A DNA stretch of 24,909 bases from a virus. The position numbers and the translations under genes are program-made. Location: the IMG/VR virus record IMGVR_UViG_3300030451_002513, positions 1-24,909 of that record. One strand, given 5' to 3'. Below, piece after piece: positions 3,061-15,951 of this stretch. A model generated the notes under the pieces. It searched no databases. It had not been told where the DNA came from and saw only the letters and a list, made by a program, of their open reading frames with translations. Every line of letters begins with the position of its first letter. Within the stretch, counting starts at the first letter, position 1.

Positions 3061-3723
3061 ATGAATAACGCCTGGTCATATTCGAGTTTATCACTGTTTC
3101 AGCAGTGTCCTAAAAAATACTATCATTTGAAAGTAAAAAAGGATGTTGTTGAAAAACAAACACATGCTCTAATTTATGGTAACGAAGTACACAAAGTTGC
3201 TGAGAAATATGTTAAGGATGATGTAGATATTCCTGAAAAGTATGCTGAGGTTTGTAAGCCGGTTCACAGAGTGAAACAGATGAAAGGTGAGAAACATTGT
3301 GAGTTGAGATTAGGCATGACCAAAGAGTTGGAACCTTGTAAGTTCTTTGATGATAACGTTTGGTGGAGGGGCGTAATTGATCTCTTGATTGTTAACGGAG
3401 ATAAGGGTAAGATAATAGACTATAAGACAGGGAAAAATAGTAAATATGCAGACATTAAACAACTTGACTTATTTACCGTAGCCGCATTTACTCACTTTCC
3501 CCATCTTACTGAAATAAAGGCAGGCCTGCTTTTTTTAGTGACCAACGATTTTATCACAAAATCTTATGTTAGAGGGGATGTTATTGGCATAATGTCTAAC
3601 TTTTATAAGGAAGTTGATATTATGGATACATGCTTTAAAGAGGATGTATGGAATGCAAAACCCAACTTTACTTGTTATAAATATTGCCCCATACTCCATT
3701 GCCCACATAATGGAAAGAGATAA
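3061..3723 (+). CDS. PD-(D/E)XK nuclease, Cas4/RecB-like, with putative Fe-S cysteines
   Basis: This 220-residue protein has the core of RecB/Cas4-type nucleases: SYSSLSLFQQCPKKYY at residues 6-21, GNEVH with H44, GVIDLL with D107, IIDYKTGK with D120 and K122, and a Q134 helix. These are the residues that bind metal and cleave DNA in this superfamily. C16 pairs with a C-terminal cluster C205, C209, C214, the arrangement that holds a 4Fe-4S cluster in Cas4, AddB and Exo5, although the spacing here is x3/x4 instead of the common x2/x5. It probably processes DNA ends in replication or recombination alongside the SNF2 helicase two genes on. No Shine-Dalgarno precedes the ATG. There is no CRISPR context, so it should not be called Cas4. 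Confidence 0.88.
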   Translation: MNNAWSYSSLSLFQQCPKKYYHLKVKKDVVEKQTHALIYGNEVHKVAEKYVKDDVDIPEKYAEVCKPVHRVKQMKGEKHCELRLGMTKELEPCKFFDDNVWWRGVIDLLIVNGDKGKIIDYKTGKNSKYADIKQLDLFTVAAFTHFPHLTEIKAGLLFLVTNDFITKSYVRGDVIGIMSNFYKEVDIMDTCFKEDVWNAKPNFTCYKYCPILHCPHNGKR

Positions 3724-3725
3724 TT

Positions 3726-3995
3726 ATGGCTACAAAAAAGAAAAAACGTAATTATAAAAAAGAATATCAACAGCAGAAAAAAAGAATTGCTAAGAATAAA
3801 GGTGTGCATGAGGCACGATTAGAAAGACAGCGTGCGAGACGTAAGCTAGATAAAAAAGGTGTCAATAGAAAAGGTAAAGATATTGCACATAAGAAAGCGT
3901 TAAGTAAAGGAGGATCAAATAAAGATGGATATAAGTTGGAGAAGCCTAGTAAGAATAGGTCATTTAAGAGGAACAAGGATAAATCTGTAGCATAG
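3726..3995 (+). CDS. very basic small HNH-like protein
   Basis: Of 89 residues, 35 are lysine or arginine. The N-terminal half is a basic helix. The C-terminal half, KDIAHKKALSKGGSN at residues 51-65 followed by PSKNRSFKRN, resembles the D-x-x-H ... GG-x-N ... N-R-S layout of small HNH-type phage proteins. Only H55 and the two asparagines are obvious, and no zinc-binding CxxC pair is present, so endonuclease activity is uncertain. The alternative is a nucleic-acid-binding protein that has lost catalysis. It starts two bases after the nuclease stop without a visible ribosome site and ends immediately before the helicase ATG, implying coupled translation across all three genes. Confidence 0.65.
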   Translation: MATKKKKRNYKKEYQQQKKRIAKNKGVHEARLERQRARRKLDKKGVNRKGKDIAHKKALSKGGSNKDGYKLEKPSKNRSFKRNKDKSVA

Positions 3996-5537
3996 ATGCA
4001 AATAGTGGAGAACCGGGAGTTACTGTTACGATTACGTAACCCTAAACGAGTGACTGATGTAGTAAAAGATACAAAGTCTTTACAAGATGGAAAAGTTTTA
4101 GTACATTGGAATTTGGAGAACGCTCAAAAATTAACTGAGATGGAGGTAAAAGTGGAATCACCAATTATTCGAGATTATGAATTTACAGGGATGTTTGATC
4201 CTTTCGAACATCAAAAAAAGACAGCATCATTTCTATCATTACGCCAGCGAGCATTTTGCTTTAACGAGCAGGGTACAGGTAAAACTGCTAGTGCAATATG
4301 GGCGTGTGATTATCTTATGAAGGAAGGTCAGATAGATAGAGTATTAATAGTCTGCCCTTTATCTATTATGCAATCCGCATGGCAACAAGATATTTTTAGA
4401 ACAGCAACACATAGAACATGTGATATTGTTTATGGTACGCCTACAAAAAGAAGAGATATATTAGATCAGGGATCGGATTTTGCTATTATTAATTACGATG
4501 GTATTGAGATAGTTGAAGAAGAAATAGTTAATGGTGGGTTTGACTTAATTATTATAGATGAGGCTAACGCTTATAAAAATCCTCAGACAAGACGTTGGAA
4601 ATGTTTGAATAGGATTTTATCTGCTAAGCCTAGCACTAGGTTATGGATGATGACAGGGACACCTGCGGCTCAATCTCCAGTAGATGCTTTTGGTTTAGCA
4701 AAGTTAGTTAATCCAGATAACACACCTAGATCTTTAGGTAATTGGAGAGATCAGGTCATGTTAAAAGTAGCACAATTTACTTGGATACCAAAGCCTCAGG
4801 CCACACAAAAAGTACATAATGTTTTACAGCCTGCTATACGATTTACAAAAGAGCAGTGTTTGGATTTACCCGCATTGACTTACCAAACAAGAAAAGTACC
4901 ACTTACAAAACAACAAGAAAAATATTATAAAGATATTAAAAACAAACTTTATATTGAGGCCGCTGAAGAAGAGATCACCGCTGTTAACGCCGCGGCTTTA
5001 ATGCAGAAGTTACTACAGATAAGTTGTGGAGCGGTCTATTCAGATACTAAAGAGACAGTACGATTCGATGCGAAAGCTAGACTAAACGTTATCAAAGAAA
5101 TCATTGATGAGACCTCACACAAAGCTCTGATATTTGTACCGTTTAGAAATGCGATAGAAATGGTCAGTGAGTTTCTAAGTAAAAATAAAATAAATAGTAA
5201 CATTATTAGCGGTGATGTAGTTGCACATAAAAGAGCTGATATATTTAATCGTTTTCAAACTGGAGATGATGTAAAGGTTTTAGTCATACAGCCGCAAGCG
5301 GCCGCACATGGTGTGACACTAACGCGAGCTGATACTGTTATATGGTTTGGCCCTACTACGAGTCTAGAAACATATATGCAGGCTAACGCTAGAGTACACA
5401 GAGCAGGACAAGTTAATAAGACTACTGTTATTAATATTGAAGGTAGCGCTGTAGAAAGAAAGATTTATAGAATGCTACAGAACAAAGAGCATGTCCACAC
5501 TAAAATTATTGATTTATATAAAGAAGAAATAAATTAA
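3996..5537 (+). CDS. SNF2-type superfamily 2 DNA helicase/translocase
   Basis: The 513-residue product contains the ordered SF2 motifs: a Q-like FEHQ at 70-73, Walker A EQGTGKT at 91-97, motif Ia VCPLSI near 119-124, motif II DEAN at 188-191, motif III MMTGTP at 218-223, motif V region around residues 431-442, and motif VI QANARVHRAGQ at 462-472. The RxHRxGQ form of motif VI is typical of SNF2 proteins. It should use ATP to move on or remodel duplex DNA during phage replication or recombination. It has only the two RecA-like domains plus a short N-terminal part, which is compact for the family and usual for phage versions. The ATG follows the preceding stop directly. Confidence 0.94.
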   Translation: MQIVENRELLLRLRNPKRVTDVVKDTKSLQDGKVLVHWNLENAQKLTEMEVKVESPIIRDYEFTGMFDPFEHQKKTASFLSLRQRAFCFNEQGTGKTASAIWACDYLMKEGQIDRVLIVCPLSIMQSAWQQDIFRTATHRTCDIVYGTPTKRRDILDQGSDFAIINYDGIEIVEEEIVNGGFDLIIIDEANAYKNPQTRRWKCLNRILSAKPSTRLWMMTGTPAAQSPVDAFGLAKLVNPDNTPRSLGNWRDQVMLKVAQFTWIPKPQATQKVHNVLQPAIRFTKEQCLDLPALTYQTRKVPLTKQQEKYYKDIKNKLYIEAAEEEITAVNAAALMQKLLQISCGAVYSDTKETVRFDAKARLNVIKEIIDETSHKALIFVPFRNAIEMVSEFLSKNKINSNIISGDVVAHKRADIFNRFQTGDDVKVLVIQPQAAAHGVTLTRADTVIWFGPTTSLETYMQANARVHRAGQVNKTTVINIEGSAVERKIYRMLQNKEHVHTKIIDLYKEEIN

Positions 5538-10126: not shown

Positions 10127-10131
10127 TAATG

Positions 10132-10160
10132 TTGTACAGTTTTATATTGTAGTCTATAAT
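10132..10160 (+). promoter_or_regulatory. strong sigma70-like promoter
   Basis: TTGTAC at 10132-10137, a 17-base spacer and a perfect TATAAT at 10155-10160 make this the best promoter match in the window. Transcription would start near 10167, inside the non-coding gap before the 61-residue gene. Confidence 0.8.
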
Positions 10161-10166
10161 AAAAGG

Positions 10167-10336
10167 GATTAATTTTTTCAAAATCGTCCTAGGCCTCTTC
10201 GTTCTCCAATCTCGAATTCTAGGAGCTGGAACCGTAACCAGCACTTTTTCAAACTCAATTTGGGGGTACCTTAGGTATCACCTAGGAAAAAATAATCGCT
10301 TAGAACGCTTCTATTCAAGAGTTTTTTAGGGTAAAT
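10167..10336 (+). ncRNA. candidate structured leader or small RNA
   Basis: This non-coding stretch follows a strong promoter and holds several possible stems: TCCTAG (10187-10192) with CTAGGA (10219-10224); GCTGG (10225-10229) with CCAGC (10238-10242); GGTACC with GGTATC at 10265-10279 around a TTA loop; and TAGAA with TTCTA at 10301-10313. TCCTAGG at 10187-10193 can also pair with CCTAGGA at 10281-10287, excluding the first stem. It could be an independent RNA ending near 10249 or an attenuating leader of the 61-residue gene. No known RNA family is recognised. Confidence 0.4.
10225..10249 (+). terminator. weak intrinsic terminator-like hairpin
   Basis: GCTGG and CCAGC form a five-pair stem with an eight-base loop, followed by AC and five T residues. 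It sits about 58 bases after the predicted transcription start at 10167, placed to terminate or attenuate transcription into the 61-residue gene. The stem is short, so efficiency is uncertain. Confidence 0.4.
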
Positions 10337-10522
10337 ATGAACGAAATTGCAAAAGTGAAGTTAAATACATACAATCGATACGAAGACATGAAAGCTGAAG
10401 CAAGAGACCTTCGTGATAAATTAAAAGAGTTACAACAGATAAAAATTGAACAACGAGAGGCTATAAAAGAACAAAGTTTGAAAAGGTTTATATCTGAGGA
10501 TAGAGTTGACGTAGAGATTTAA
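10337..10522 (+). CDS. small helical hypothetical protein
   Basis: This 61-residue product is almost wholly charged helix. From about residue 16 to 50 it has a coiled-coil pattern (MKAEARDLRDKLKELQQ), and there are no cysteines or membrane segments. AGGG at 10328-10331, five bases before the ATG, supports it as a real gene. It is last on the plus strand and has its own upstream promoter and leader. Its TAA at 10520-10522 overlaps the stop of the opposing 1810-residue gene, so its transcript, unless ended, would run antisense into late genes. The function is unknown; a small regulator is one possibility. Confidence 0.55.
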   Translation: MNEIAKVKLNTYNRYEDMKAEARDLRDKLKELQQIKIEQREAIKEQSLKRFISEDRVDVEI

Positions 10523-13500
10523 TCTTCTAAGCCTGAGAATTTTTTCATTTCTTCTAATCTAGTTGCTTTAAATAAAGTTTGTAGTTCACTAGCTGGCACG
10601 TCGCCGGACAATCCAAACGCATCATTCATAAATCTTCTTTTTATTCTATCAAAGCTAGATTGACTAATATTATCTGCTGTTATAAGAACAGTACCATAAC
10701 GTATTGCCTGCTCGTTATATTTATCTATTTCAGAAAAAAGCTCTTTCATACTTGATGGTTCATCCGTCAGTACACTTAAAATAATTTTAGTTAATATATT
10801 GGTTTTTTTAATAGTTAGCCTATCGTAAGCGTCTAATAATTCATTTTTCTTATCTTGTAAGTTTTGTAGTCTTTTTCTTTCGGCAGTGCCTATACCATAA
10901 ATTTTATCTATATCTTTACTGGTAATACCTAAGAATATAAGCCCTTGCTCATATGGAGCAAGTTCAGCTATAGTGTATCCGCCTCTAGTTTGCAAGCCTT
11001 CTTGTTCAATTCTTATACTTTTAACTATATTTCGTATTGAACTTGGTAACACGTTTTCTAAAGCTCTAGTTGGGTTGTTGTTCTGAAAATCTATAAGAGA
11101 CTTTTGCAATGACACTCCTAATCCACCTAGAGGTCCACCTAGAAGCTGAATCCAATATTCCCATGTAGTGTAGTCTTGGTATGGTATTTTTGCAAGCGCT
11201 CCACCAACACCAGTTCGCTCTGCTAATTTAGCTTTTGTAAGATTTTCTAACGGACCAGTCCACAGTATTCTACCTAACTCAGTATCAAATACTGGCATTT
11301 TAGTGCCTAATGCACTTGCCATAAAGTTTTCTACGTTAGCTTCCGCGTCTAACTTATATGGGTTGTCTGGGTCGTCTTCGTCTGTTAAAAATAGATTTAT
11401 AAGTATTTGTATTGCAAACGCTGCAGGAAACCCATAGGCTATACCAGAAGTTACAAATCCAGTAGTCATCATACCTGCTAGTTGACGTCTAGCTTCTTGC
11501 CTAATCGCTTTTATTTCTGCTTTTGTATATCCTTCTTTTTCTAAATCTAAAAATGACTTACGTATTGCCATAGCCCAATTTGTAAACATTAACACAGGGT
11601 ATTTTTTAAACATTAATAATGAACGATATACTGGTTTTTTAAAGTATTCGCCTGAGTTCGCATAAGAATAATCACCGTGCGATTCACGTGTTACTTCTTT
11701 AGCGTAATCATAAGGATTATCAAATTTTTCTCCGGTTTTTAACTTTGATCTATCTTTATTTGCTAAACGTAGAGCGGCTATAAATGTAACTTCTTTGTTT
11801 AGAGTTTCTGTTCCGCCAAATGCACCAAATAATATTGTCGTAGCAGTTTTTGTAATGTTACCTTTTGGTGATATTTTATCCAGCGGATCTCTAAGGTCTT
11901 GTCTGTTTATATCCAAGCTAGCGCCAGTTTGGGATATTATTTGGTTATTTTCTATAATATTTTCTACGTATGCTCTTGCTAAAGCCCGCTCTTCTGTTTT
12001 AGTTAATGTAGTGGGAAGTGGAATAACGTATTTTCTATTATCAAGTGATGGGTCATTCATACGACCGTAAAGTTGCGCATGAGTAAATGTTGTAGTTTTC
12101 CTATCTCTTGTTATTCCTTTTGAAATATTATCTCCAAGTATTTCAATTCCTGTGTTCATCAATTCTTGATACACAGCAGCAGTTTTGTATTTACCTCGCA
12201 TTATGGATGCTGCCATCGAAGGAGTTTGAAATAAGTTAATCATAGCTGAGGCATAAGAAGTCAAGTAATAAAGAAATCCTAAACGTCCACCAAGGTTAGC
12301 TGCTGTATTCCACCCATCTATTCGCGGATTTATTATAAGATCAAGGTCTGCCCTAAATACTTCTTTTGCTGCTAGTACAGCATTTCTTGTTTTCTGATCT
12401 TCAATAGGATCTACTACTTTATTTAATTCTTGTAAAGCGTTTTCTACTTTTAATAACGATTCTAGACTAGCTAATTGTTTTGCTTTACCTAAAGCCTGAG
12501 CGTTAAATACTTTATCTACTGGTTGTGAAGAAAATCCCAGAGTTTTATCTCTATTTAAAGCGCTTAAGGCTATCGCATTTTGCGGTAAGTTTTTTATGAA
12601 GAAAGACGTTAATTGTTCTTTAAGTTCGTTTCTAGCTTTCCCTTCCGCAGAATCTGCATCAATCTTACCCATCTTTTGATCTATTAGACTAATAAGTTTT
12701 TTAAGTGCTGATGGTAAAGGAATGTTATTTTTTTCTTTTACAATCTCCGCATCTGAAGTAAAGTATCTAGGACTTACTGCTTCAGGACGTCTTTTTAATG
12801 CTTGTACTATTTGTTTTGCTTCGTATTCTGTTTCTGCTGATGCTTTAACTAGTTCACCTTTTTGCTCCCATAAAATCCAGAACTTACCCATTCTTCTAAA
12901 ACTAGTATAGTAGTCTAGCGGTGGTTTACTCGCAAATAGTTGTCTTAGTTCTGCTTTTAATTCTGCTCTTTGAGTTGCGCTTTCAGCTAATGCATCAACA
13001 GTTCCTTCTGAAGACTTAAGATAACTTTGGTAGTTAGCGCGCTCATACTCACCTAAATCTTTATATAAAGATTGTCCTTCTGGATCTAAACTATTATATA
13101 TTGGGCGCAACCTGCGGTAATATGTTTTTCTTTCAGCATCTAAACTTTCAAAGTAATCATTATCTCTACTAACATCTACATTATAGAGGCTAGAATCATT
13201 CATTAAATTATTTAACTTAGTGCTTTTTTCATTTTTTTTATTATCAAGCATGTAATTAGTAAGTCTTTGCCCAAGGGATCGAGCGCCGAACATATATTTA
13301 TCAAATGTGTCTGCCATATTTGTTATAGCAGCTCTATAGTTATTGAGCGCTGCAGCGACCGGTGCCTTTATATTTGGCGCAAGCGCTATGAATTTCGCAA
13401 GCCTTTCCGGCGGTACAAACTTAAGTGCTATTTTTTTAGCTGCGCTTGTGAGGGTTGAAAAACTTCCAAATACTGCGTCCAAGAATCTATTAGTAGTATT

Positions 13501-15951
13501 GTCTCCTAGCTCATTAAATACTCCTTGAAAAGTTGCAGCTTGTGTATCTCGCACTTCTTCGTTTTTGGCAATATTTTCTTCTGCGGTTTTTGTTTTCTCA
13601 GCATCTATTATGTCTTGCTTAGTTTCTTTAGATAAAATAACTCTATCTTTTTGTAGGCTTTGTTTTGTTGCTATTAAGTCTTGTCTGAGTTTATTAAAAT
13701 TTTTAGTATCTGCATTATTAATCGTTAGCTCAGGTACTTTCGCGCCTATCTCATTAGCAAGGGTTCTTAACTGTCCTGTAACTTCAGTAATATTATCACT
13801 AGTTATTTTTTGATTTAGTGTTTCATCTATTTTAGAAATTAAATCGCCTTTAGTTGCATCGTCAACTTGCACCGGTTGTAATTTATCTACCCTAGCAACT
13901 TTTGTTTTTTGATTAGGTTTTAATTTATACTTTACAACTTTATTATCTGCAGATTCTATCGCCGCTCCTGCTTTTACTAATTCTTGTACCTTATCTTGTA
14001 TCGGACCTTTTTCAATTAAAGTTTCTACCTCTTGCTCTTTAGCTGCGTCAAATTCTTGTTTATTTATTGGTAGTTTATTATCTTTTAAATATTGTGTTAC
14101 TTTATTTGGCTTTAATTTTTGTTCAGTTTGTATTCCTTTTCTGAACTCTTTGTAATTGTTAAACTTTACAAACTTAGCAGGTTTTAGATCTACAGGTGTT
14201 ATTGGAGTGTCGACTTTTCCTGGTCCTGTTTGATCAGCATCAATTCTTGGTGTAGCAGCATCCAACTTTCCAGTGTCAGGTCCCTCAAGACTTTCGGTAG
14301 CTTCTTGATCTTTTCCGGTTTCGGGTTTTCCAGGAACTGCCACGCCATCTCCAGTTCTTTTTGCGTCAGCATCTTTGACCTCGCTTTCTTTTACTTTTAT
14401 ACTTTTTAGTTGACTCCATTTTAAGTTAGCGTCTGGGTCAATAGTTTTCTTTTTATCTTTCCAAGTTATATTACTATCTAAATCACTCCACTTAACTGCA
14501 TCAGTTTCTTTTTTACCTTGTGGAGGTGGGACTTTTAATTGGCCCCAGGTTATATCTTGTCTTTTTGCTATTTGTTGTTTTGTAGGTTTAATTACGTTTA
14601 TATCATCGAAATCAAGTTTAATATCGCCTACTTCACTAGCTAGCTTAGGTTGTAAATCTCTTATTAGGTTTATCTTACCTTGATACGTATCCTCCATATC
14701 TGCTGCAGATACCATCTCTTCATTAAAACCAGCAGTGTCTAAAGTAGAATCTAGTTCTGCCTCACTAACGTTTTCTTTTCTATCTAATTTACTTAATACT
14801 TTATTGATATTTTTTAGTGCGGCTTCTCTTTCTGGTGCTTGAGCTTCTTGTAACTCTTGAATTGTTTGCTGACCCTTTGCTTTTCGTTCTGCTTGTATTA
14901 CGCCGCTTTTTTCCATAGATCTAGTAACTGATCCTAATGGCGCACCTAATAAAATACCACCAGCCATAGCTTCAATATAAGCATTCATAGCATCTTTATC
15001 AGTTAATGATCTACCAGCCTGCGCTCTTTCAATTACAGTTTGGATTACCTCCTGTGTTGCCTCAAAACCAGCACCAAATGCAGCACCTTTTCCTAGAGTT
15101 TTAGCGCCGCTTTCTGCGGCTTTAGGAGTCATAAGTTTGACAAGAGAATCATCTATTTTAGTTGCAGCACCTGCTACTTTATTAGCAACAGTTCTACCTA
15201 AAGTTTTATCAATGACGCCTTTTGCAACTGAAGCCGCCTTATCTGTACCTTCAGCACCAAGTAATTTAGCGATAGGTTTAAAAAATCTAAAACCGATAGC
15301 GTCTAAAGCAACAGACCCCGCACTACCAGCAGCGGCTTTTAATATACTAGGACCTTCTTTTTGTTCTCCGCGATCTGCGCGTTCCCTATCTGCACTTGCT
15401 TGCTCACCTAAATAATCAACAAGATACTGCCCAAACAATACACTAAAAAATGCTATTGGCGCACCAACCCCACCTGTAACCGCACCTGTTCCTAAAGCTG
15501 CCGCAGTCGGAGCGGCTAAAAAACCTGTAGTGCCAGCAGCGGTCTGCTTTGCCCATTCTAGAATATCTTTACCACTTCTAATATCTAAGAATCCTGTGGT
15601 CTTTCCCTCAACTGCCTGTGCTTTCATAAGCGCTTGTGCGGCAGAGTCATCACCGGTAATACCATACTTAAGAGATGTTATTAGTTCTCCAAGGTTATCT
15701 GCTTGCTCAAGAAATAATTCACCAAATGTAGCTTGTCTAGGTTCTTCTATAACTGTGGGATCTGCAACTTGAGGCGTTTCTACACCAGTGCCAATATCTA
15801 AAGGTTGAGCCGGAGGCTCTGGCGCGATAGGCGCTAAAGGGGATATCATCCCCGCTTCTATTTTTCTATAAGCATCTGCATAAATAAACTCATCTGGTAC
15901 GTAATCTGGGTACTCTATGGGCGCAAACCCCGGAATATTTAATTGCTTCAT
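10519..15951 (-). CDS. giant virion/ejection protein with PLxRFG-like C-terminal region
   Basis: At 1810 residues this is the largest product. A proline-rich N-terminus (about 35-75) precedes a glycine/alanine-rich hydrophobic zone at 137-181, a helical part to about 460, four tryptophan boxes at 467-515, a charged linker to about 590, and long helical stretches. Residues about 1216-1525 (GRLGFLYYLTSYASAMINLF, then TLNKEVTFIAALRLA, HGDYSYANSGE and YRSLLMFKKYPVLMF) resemble the PLxRFG region of large phage polyvalent proteins. A hydrophobic segment lies at about 1495-1522. I see no lysozyme or transglycosylase motif. Its size and terminal place after two other virion-type genes suggest a gp16-like internal protein ejected with DNA. 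It overlaps the upstream gene as ATGA. Confidence 0.8.
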   Translation of the reverse strand: MKQLNIPGFAPIEYPDYVPDEFIYADAYRKIEAGMISPLAPIAPEPPAQPLDIGTGVETPQVADPTVIEEPRQATFGELFLEQADNLGELITSLKYGITGDDSAAQALMKAQAVEGKTTGFLDIRSGKDILEWAKQTAAGTTGFLAAPTAAALGTGAVTGGVGAPIAFFSVLFGQYLVDYLGEQASADRERADRGEQKEGPSILKAAAGSAGSVALDAIGFRFFKPIAKLLGAEGTDKAASVAKGVIDKTLGRTVANKVAGAATKIDDSLVKLMTPKAAESGAKTLGKGAAFGAGFEATQEVIQTVIERAQAGRSLTDKDAMNAYIEAMAGGILLGAPLGSVTRSMEKSGVIQAERKAKGQQTIQELQEAQAPEREAALKNINKVLSKLDRKENVSEAELDSTLDTAGFNEEMVSAADMEDTYQGKINLIRDLQPKLASEVGDIKLDFDDINVIKPTKQQIAKRQDITWGQLKVPPPQGKKETDAVKWSDLDSNITWKDKKKTIDPDANLKWSQLKSIKVKESEVKDADAKRTGDGVAVPGKPETGKDQEATESLEGPDTGKLDAATPRIDADQTGPGKVDTPITPVDLKPAKFVKFNNYKEFRKGIQTEQKLKPNKVTQYLKDNKLPINKQEFDAAKEQEVETLIEKGPIQDKVQELVKAGAAIESADNKVVKYKLKPNQKTKVARVDKLQPVQVDDATKGDLISKIDETLNQKITSDNITEVTGQLRTLANEIGAKVPELTINNADTKNFNKLRQDLIATKQSLQKDRVILSKETKQDIIDAEKTKTAEENIAKNEEVRDTQAATFQGVFNELGDNTTNRFLDAVFGSFSTLTSAAKKIALKFVPPERLAKFIALAPNIKAPVAAALNNYRAAITNMADTFDKYMFGARSLGQRLTNYMLDNKKNEKSTKLNNLMNDSSLYNVDVSRDNDYFESLDAERKTYYRRLRPIYNSLDPEGQSLYKDLGEYERANYQSYLKSSEGTVDALAESATQRAELKAELRQLFASKPPLDYYTSFRRMGKFWILWEQKGELVKASAETEYEAKQIVQALKRRPEAVSPRYFTSDAEIVKEKNNIPLPSALKKLISLIDQKMGKIDADSAEGKARNELKEQLTSFFIKNLPQNAIALSALNRDKTLGFSSQPVDKVFNAQALGKAKQLASLESLLKVENALQELNKVVDPIEDQKTRNAVLAAKEVFRADLDLIINPRIDGWNTAANLGGRLGFLYYLTSYASAMINLFQTPSMAASIMRGKYKTAAVYQELMNTGIEILGDNISKGITRDRKTTTFTHAQLYGRMNDPSLDNRKYVIPLPTTLTKTEERALARAYVENIIENNQIISQTGASLDINRQDLRDPLDKISPKGNITKTATTILFGAFGGTETLNKEVTFIAALRLANKDRSKLKTGEKFDNPYDYAKEVTRESHGDYSYANSGEYFKKPVYRSLLMFKKYPVLMFTNWAMAIRKSFLDLEKEGYTKAEIKAIRQEARRQLAGMMTTGFVTSGIAYGFPAAFAIQILINLFLTDEDDPDNPYKLDAEANVENFMASALGTKMPVFDTELGRILWTGPLENLTKAKLAERTGVGGALAKIPYQDYTTWEYWIQLLGGPLGGLGVSLQKSLIDFQNNNPTRALENVLPSSIRNIVKSIRIEQEGLQTRGGYTIAELAPYEQGLIFLGITSKDIDKIYGIGTAERKRLQNLQDKKNELLDAYDRLTIKKTNILTKIILSVLTDEPSSMKELFSEIDKYNEQAIRYGTVLITADNISQSSFDRIKRRFMNDAFGLSGDVPASELQTLFKATRLEEMKKFSGLED

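What the first reader, a model, noticed from the sequence alone, without database searches (positions are those of the whole stretch)
10127..10336. Structured non-coding RNA candidate at the end of the early block
Seen: a consensus-like promoter, multiple short stems, a hairpin plus T5, and mutually exclusive pairings (TCCTAG with CTAGGA, or TCCTAGG with CCTAGGA about 90 bases downstream). The stretch is packed with palindromic hexamers (CCTAGG twice, AGGCCT, GAATTC, GGTACC), unlike the flanking coding DNA. Inference: a phage small RNA, an attenuated leader for the 61-residue gene, or a protein-bound site such as an origin.
Basis: partly seen in the sequence, partly recalled or inferred. Interest (0 to 1): 0.62.

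Follow-up and report, generated by a model that had tools for sequence, protein, structure and literature searches.

The report
Widespread two-hairpin phage leader RNA
The stretch holds a small folded RNA (two back-to-back hairpins with a fixed loop) that recurs, about once per genome, in many unrelated phages of Pseudomonadota, including the classic phage P1, matches no catalogued RNA family, and is probably a leader that acts on the host's gene-expression machinery.

Summary
Window 10180-10243 carries a structured RNA core: A-rich + CG, stem P1 (TCCTAG/CTAGGA) and, with no spacer, stem P2 (GCTGG-AACCGTAA-CCAGC), then A. Two distant relatives (primase 40% identical) keep it at the same junction, just before the same 61-residue gene. 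Pattern scans found it in over 100 phage contigs and in named phages P1, P7, PY54, Rtp, ACG-M12, Arya, phiNP and Bordetella phages. Pairing is supported by covariation: of 93 hits with the middle P2 pair left free, 87 are complementary (80 C-G, 7 G-C); P1 with preceding CG abuts P2 in 73/91 hits versus about 6 in other registers. The 'hairpin + T5' is P2 itself; neither the T run nor the downstream alternative pairing is conserved, so terminator and attenuator readings fail. No Rfam match; no description in the papers searched. Copies prefer positions just upstream of a ribosome-binding site or a tRNA, before unrelated genes. Most likely a leader RNA acting on host machinery (RNA polymerase first, by analogy to HK022 put, not homologous); mechanism inferred (about 0.4). 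Main rival: a stand-alone trans-acting RNA.

The parts
10133..10160 (+). promoter-like sequence TGTACA-16-TATAAT, expected start about 10167
   Evidence: 10 of 12 consensus bases; sigma-70 scores of at least 10/12 within 110 nt upstream of the core are in excess over shuffles in the whole set (3 vs 0.4, this window among them); not conserved in detail in L006/L008
10180..10186 (+). A-rich + CG flank (AAAATCG) at the 5' side of P1
   Evidence: AATCG identical in L006 and L008; CG precedes 41 of 49 abutting stems of at least 5 bp in unrelated phages
10187..10192 (+). P1, 5' strand (TCCTAG)
   Evidence: pairs with 10219-10224; P1 covaries across phages
10193..10218 (+). P1 loop, with CUCC-containing TTCTCC at 10202-10207
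   Evidence: GTTCTCC kept in both relatives; CUCC in long P1 loops 14/36 vs 4.6 in shuffles
10219..10224 (+). P1, 3' strand (CTAGGA), directly abutting P2
   Evidence: zero spacer between P1 and P2 in 73/91 hits vs about 6 at other registers
10225..10242 (+). P2 hairpin GCTGG-AACCGTAA-CCAGC
   Evidence: exact in L006 and L008; middle pair covaries U-A, C-G, G-C
10243..10250 (+). A followed by a G-poor tail (ACTTTTTC)
   Evidence: A in 91% and G under 10% in the next seven positions across phages; the T run itself is not conserved
10251..10336 (+). window-specific insert with hairpin GGTACC(10265-10270)/GGTATC(10274-10279), second CCTAGG (10281-10286) and SD-like AGGG (10328-10331)
   Evidence: absent from L006 and L008; function untested
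10337..10522 (+). 61-residue gene downstream of the core
   Evidence: conserved in L006 and L008 (64-66% identity); no PHROG match and no Pfam match above cut-off

Best explanation
The stretch encodes a member of a widespread phage RNA motif of about 45-65 nt: A-rich + CG, then P1 (any sequence, 4-9 bp), then with zero spacer P2 with loop ANNCGUAA, then A and a G-poor tail. SHOWN: it is an RNA-level, base-paired structure kept across unrelated phages. INFERRED: it is a cis-acting 5' leader that folds as it is transcribed and is recognised, through CG, the P2 loop and the P1/P2 junction, by a conserved component of the bacterial host, more likely RNA polymerase (changing elongation, pausing or termination of that transcript, as HK022 put RNA does) than the ribosome. 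In this virus it would be made from the promoter at 10133-10160 and govern the short transcript holding the 61-residue gene.
For: Covariation of P1 and P2. Position: an SD and start codon lie 15-40 nt downstream in 30 of 119 loci vs 4.3 at random positions; a same-strand tRNA lies within 500 nt in 17 vs 6.2; where no ORF overlaps, the downstream gene is co-directional in 40 of 49. Downstream proteins are mostly unrelated to one another (63 fall into 54 groups), so the target is not one gene. Usually one copy, sometimes two, per phage record. Every named phage hit in the two short-query scans infects Pseudomonadota, which suits a conserved host factor. PY54 carries it between a methylase gene and the holin, where lambda has its late-leader region (lambda layout from general knowledge). 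HK022 put sets a precedent for a protein-free two-stem-loop RNA that acts on RNA polymerase (PMC9378689).
Against: No direct evidence for RNA polymerase or for any effect. Intrinsic terminators are not enriched downstream (5 vs 4.7). In Arya the core is followed by a terminator and a convergent gene and in the window only a 186-bp gene follows before convergent genes, so there is little for an antiterminator to serve. No sequence match to HK022. A CRISPRi survey scores plp, trnT and tciA of the P1 region as non-essential (PMC10695390).
Confidence: 0.4

Rival explanations
1. Stand-alone, trans-acting phage RNA: the P1-P2 core is a docking module for a host protein (for example an RNA-processing or defence protein) and is carried in whatever transcript is convenient (tRNA arrays, a gene of its own with a terminator, 5' UTRs).
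For: About one copy per genome and no fixed downstream gene; placement in tRNA clusters and in a terminator-ended unit without a downstream gene in Arya; the P1 region is dispensable in the laboratory, as for an accessory function (PMC10695390).
Against: Strong preference for the position just before an RBS (30/119 vs 4.3), which a trans-acting RNA does not need.
Confidence: 0.27
2. Small self-cleaving ribozyme that trims phage transcripts, like hammerhead or HDV-like (theta) ribozymes, which also occur near phage tRNAs.
For: Few but invariant unpaired bases (CG, ANNCGUAA, A), small size, abutment to tRNA 5' ends in P1, IFTN2/6, L248 and L250; a known theme in phages (PMC10879173, listed, abstract only).
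Against: No Rfam ribozyme family matches; no known catalytic core recognised.
Confidence: 0.12
3. Gene-specific translational switch: P1 or its CUCC loop masks the GGAG at the P1/P2 junction, or P2 brings that SD close to the AUG (as in T4-type split ribosome-binding sites, from general knowledge).
For: In L006 and L008 no SD lies between P2 and the ATG 7-8 nt on, and AGGAG overlaps P1' and P2; CUCC in long P1 loops 14/36 vs 4.6 in shuffles.
Against: GGAG is absent from most other copies, many of which have a normal SD after P2; the window itself has moved its ATG 94 nt away. At best a local addition in this sub-family.
Confidence: 0.1
4. Terminator, attenuator, or DNA site (origin or protein-binding palindromes), as the first reader also proposed.
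For: Hairpin followed by ACTTTTTC in this window; palindromic hexamers.
Against: T run and second pairing not conserved; skew explained by the strand switch; P1 varies freely in sequence and loop length while staying paired, and orientation follows the transcript.
Confidence: 0.04

Closest known systems
HK022 put RNA (putL/putR), RNA-only processive antiterminator
   Same: phage-borne, two stem-loops, short, can sit directly downstream of a promoter, needs no phage protein (PMC9378689)
   Different: about 70 nt with a triplex in stem I; no match of the model to HK022; ours has a zero spacer, an invariant ANNCGUAA loop and a different distribution; antitermination untested
lambda nut/boxB and Q-type antitermination sites
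   Same: phage leader elements on which RNA polymerase is modified (general knowledge)
   Different: need phage proteins N or Q; hairpin and loop differ; model R2 finds nothing in lambda
HDV-like theta ribozymes of phage tRNA regions
   Same: small structured RNAs near phage tRNAs (PMC10879173)
   Different: no Rfam match; different architecture as far as I know it
GOLLD, ROOL and other large phage RNAs
   Same: phage-borne, some near tRNAs (general knowledge)
   Different: hundreds of nt; no Rfam match here

Membership tests
HK022 put RNA | sequence/structure match to put | tested here: not met
   model R2 has no match in the complete HK022 record; the reverse search with a put model was not done
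HK022 put RNA | cis antitermination through the RNA polymerase beta' zinc-binding domain, without phage protein | not testable with these tools
   needs in vitro transcription; feature described in PMC9378689
HK022 put RNA | two stem-loops in a leader downstream of an early promoter | tested here: inconclusive
   two abutting stem-loops yes; leader position enriched; promoter excess small
any Rfam 15 family | score above the family's gathering cut-off | tested here: not met
   window and 20 other loci: only tRNAs; relaxed scans of the core regions gave nothing convincing
intrinsic terminator | GC-rich hairpin followed by a conserved U run | tested here: not met
   U run present only in the window, not in L006/L008
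attenuator with mutually exclusive pairings | both alternative helices conserved | tested here: not met
   second partner (10281-10287) missing in relatives
tRNA or tmRNA | cloverleaf found by ARAGORN | tested here: not met
   none in the window
self-cleaving ribozyme | site-specific self-cleavage | not testable with these tools
   no Rfam ribozyme match
replication origin | skew minimum at the site and an orientation-independent DNA element | tested here: not met
   skew goes + to - together with the gene strand; orientation tied to downstream genes; iterons not specifically searched

The most novel reading that the evidence does not exclude
An undescribed RNA class with which phages across Pseudomonadota, from aquatic viruses to coliphage P1, reprogramme a host machine (RNA polymerase, ribosome or an RNA-processing/defence protein) with a roughly 45-nt RNA alone, without any phage protein.
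Probability: 0.4. Interest if true: 0.9.

Novelty: new variant of a known kind. Interest (0 to 1): 0.72.

Why it matters
A compact, covarying RNA shared by very different phages, and present in the well-known phages P1, PY54 and Rtp, is absent from Rfam and from the annotation of those genomes. If it acts on RNA polymerase it would show that RNA-only control of host transcription, known to me only from HK022-type phages and a few bacterial leaders, is common. If it acts in trans it is a candidate phage effector RNA. Either way P1 and Rtp make it directly testable in laboratory E. coli.

Tried and rejected
Rfam scans at strict and relaxed thresholds (only tRNAs as credible matches). BLASTN of the junction in named phages (no hit). 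Relatives through the 1810-residue protein (none). Terminator, attenuator and origin readings. Class-specific model R1 over 268 genomes of the Achromobacter family and 398 of the phylum: strong hits in G001, G052 and G076 and one real weak variant (L043); the other weak ones look like chance. General model R2 over 398 genomes of the phylum found nothing at E<=1e-5, not even in the Achromobacter genome known to hold a copy, so that scan is uninformative. Sequence relation to HK022 put (none). Pseudoknot of the 5' CG with the loop CG: both pairs never vary, so no evidence either way; the adjacent column is A-U or G-U in 42 of 54. A resemblance of the loop to the 16S decoding-site sequence GUCGUAAC was considered and dropped, because the two variable loop positions do not favour GU. 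Literature searches for the motif or its sequence found no description; the library lacks most subscription papers.

Full report
Check of the observation. The finding lies between the end of a 997-residue primase-helicase gene and a 61-codon ORF, on a 24.9-kb virus fragment from IMG/VR. The promoter-like sequence, the short stems and the hairpin with T5 are in the sequence. On their own they are only modestly unusual: fold z -2.1, promoter matches in the area no more than in shuffles, palindromic hexamers 7 against a mean of 2.9.

Close relatives. The 61-residue protein and an exact 23-mer from the hairpin both led to IMG/VR viruses L006 (an identical stretch is also held as L005/L007/L009) and L008. 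The primases are 40-41% identical and the 61-residue proteins 64-66%, yet the junction keeps AATCGTCCTAG, a TTCTCC stretch and the 26-mer CTAGGAGCTGGAACCGTAACCAGCAC. In both relatives the ATG follows the hairpin after 7-8 nt. The 80-nt segment with GGTACC and the second CCTAGG is specific to the window, and the T run is not conserved.

Unrelated phages. Freeing the loop (GGAGCTGGNNCCGNNACCAGC) returned the same element, with AATCGTCC upstream and a different P1 (UCCGG/CCGGA, UCCAGA/UCUGGA), in unrelated phages, and a similar pattern found it in an Achromobacter genome.

Tests of the RNA structure. Pattern GCVGGANNCGTAACCBGCA allows nine combinations at the middle P2 pair, of which three are Watson-Crick. 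Of 93 distinct hits 80 are C-G and 7 G-C; all 73 hits that also have CG+P1 are paired. In the same set, selected on P2 alone, CG plus a P1 of at least 4 bp exactly abutting P2 occurs in 73 of 91, against 2-10 at other registers, and CG precedes 41 of 49 abutting stems of at least 5 bp. On 54 aligned sequences all five P1 pairs show two-sided changes, and the covariation score is 0.48 against 0.15 in shuffles and 0.05-0.10 in slid controls. Those sequences were chosen to have P1, so the register test is the cleaner one. P1 loop length runs from 4 to over 50 nt.

Consensus. A-rich, CG, P1 (4-9 bp), zero spacer, P2 GCNGG-ANNCGUAA-CCNGC, A (91%), then seven G-poor nucleotides. The GCNGG frame and the loop of P2 were imposed by my search patterns and may be looser in nature; Bordetella phage IFTN6 (GCCGG/CCGGU) and the upstream P1-phage copy (loop AAACGUAC) already deviate.

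Distribution and context. Named carriers are E. coli Drexlerviridae ACG-M12, MM01 and Rtp (part of the surrounding intergenic region is shared by 96 records), P1 with two copies (69305-69347, directly before tRNA-Asn, and 69687-69730), P7, D6, RCS47 and SJ46, Yersinia PY54 (between methylase and holin), Citrobacter phiNP, Enterobacter Arya, Vibrio Bakedbeans, Bordetella PHB04, IFTN2 and IFTN6, and Curvibacter P26059A. P7, D6, RCS47 and SJ46 rest on the 20-nt P2 match alone. Fifty records carry one copy, sometimes two. Lambda, T4, T7, N15, Mu and HK022 have none that the model finds; a model built on short P1 loops can miss long-loop copies. Copies prefer the position just before an RBS (30/119 vs 4.3) and near tRNAs (17/119 vs 6.2), not near terminators (5 vs 4.7). 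Downstream proteins are mostly unrelated to one another: 63 fall into 54 groups by shared 4-mers; only a few were compared with family databases, so their functions are not claimed.

How it may work. A gene-independent, leader-positioned RNA seen about once per genome in phages of one host phylum points to shared host machinery. I favour a cis effect on RNA polymerase, for which HK022 put RNA is the precedent (PMC9378689), with probability about 0.4, and a trans-acting RNA second. Shown: structure, conservation, position. Inferred: transcription of the leader, recognition by a host factor, and the effect. The genes of the P1 region (plp, trnT, tciA) score as non-essential in a CRISPRi survey (PMC10695390), so an accessory role must be kept open.

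A sub-class. The window group and several others have long P1 loops with CUCC (14/36 vs 4.6 in shuffles). In L006 and L008 no SD precedes the ATG. A local translational role for this sub-class is possible.

Novelty. No Rfam family matches, and ten literature searches found no description. I rate it a new variant of a known kind (structured phage leader RNA) because the function is unproven; as an RNA family it appears undescribed.

Noticed in passing
L287 (P1) 4020-4450, L288 (PY54) 3920-4060, L083, L068, L027: Directly after P2 many copies have a long (15-23 bp) hairpin enclosing a T-arm-like minihelix (GGGTTCATATCCC in PY54, GGTTCGATTCC in L083), i.e. a tRNA-like domain that ARAGORN does not call; P1 has several such hairpins in its ban operon.
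   Followed up: partly
L071, L092, L104, L124, L132, L144, L163, L166: A sub-group with CUCCU-bearing P1 loops precedes small cysteine-rich (zinc-ribbon-like) proteins of 64-114 residues, some of them without an obvious SD.
   Followed up: partly
L060, L068, L077, L096, L100, L114: Large tRNA arrays (8-25 tRNAs) carry the core between or beside tRNA genes; some neighbouring stretches look like very divergent tRNAs that ARAGORN misses.
   Followed up: no
L034 5259-5300, L043, L094 and similar: A distinct variant GCGG-TGGAA(G/C)T-CCGC for P1 recurs in Bordetella, Achromobacter and probable Pseudomonas prophages, in places where other phages carry the UCCGG form.
   Followed up: partly
window 10519-15951 (-): 1810-residue protein with a weak, below-cut-off match to a large polyvalent protein domain (LPD39); no relative found in viral contigs by the pattern search.
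   Followed up: partly
L290 (Arya) 3543-3621: The tRNA-Arg annotated on the + strand reads as the reverse complement of a tRNA, so the annotated strand looks wrong.
   Followed up: no
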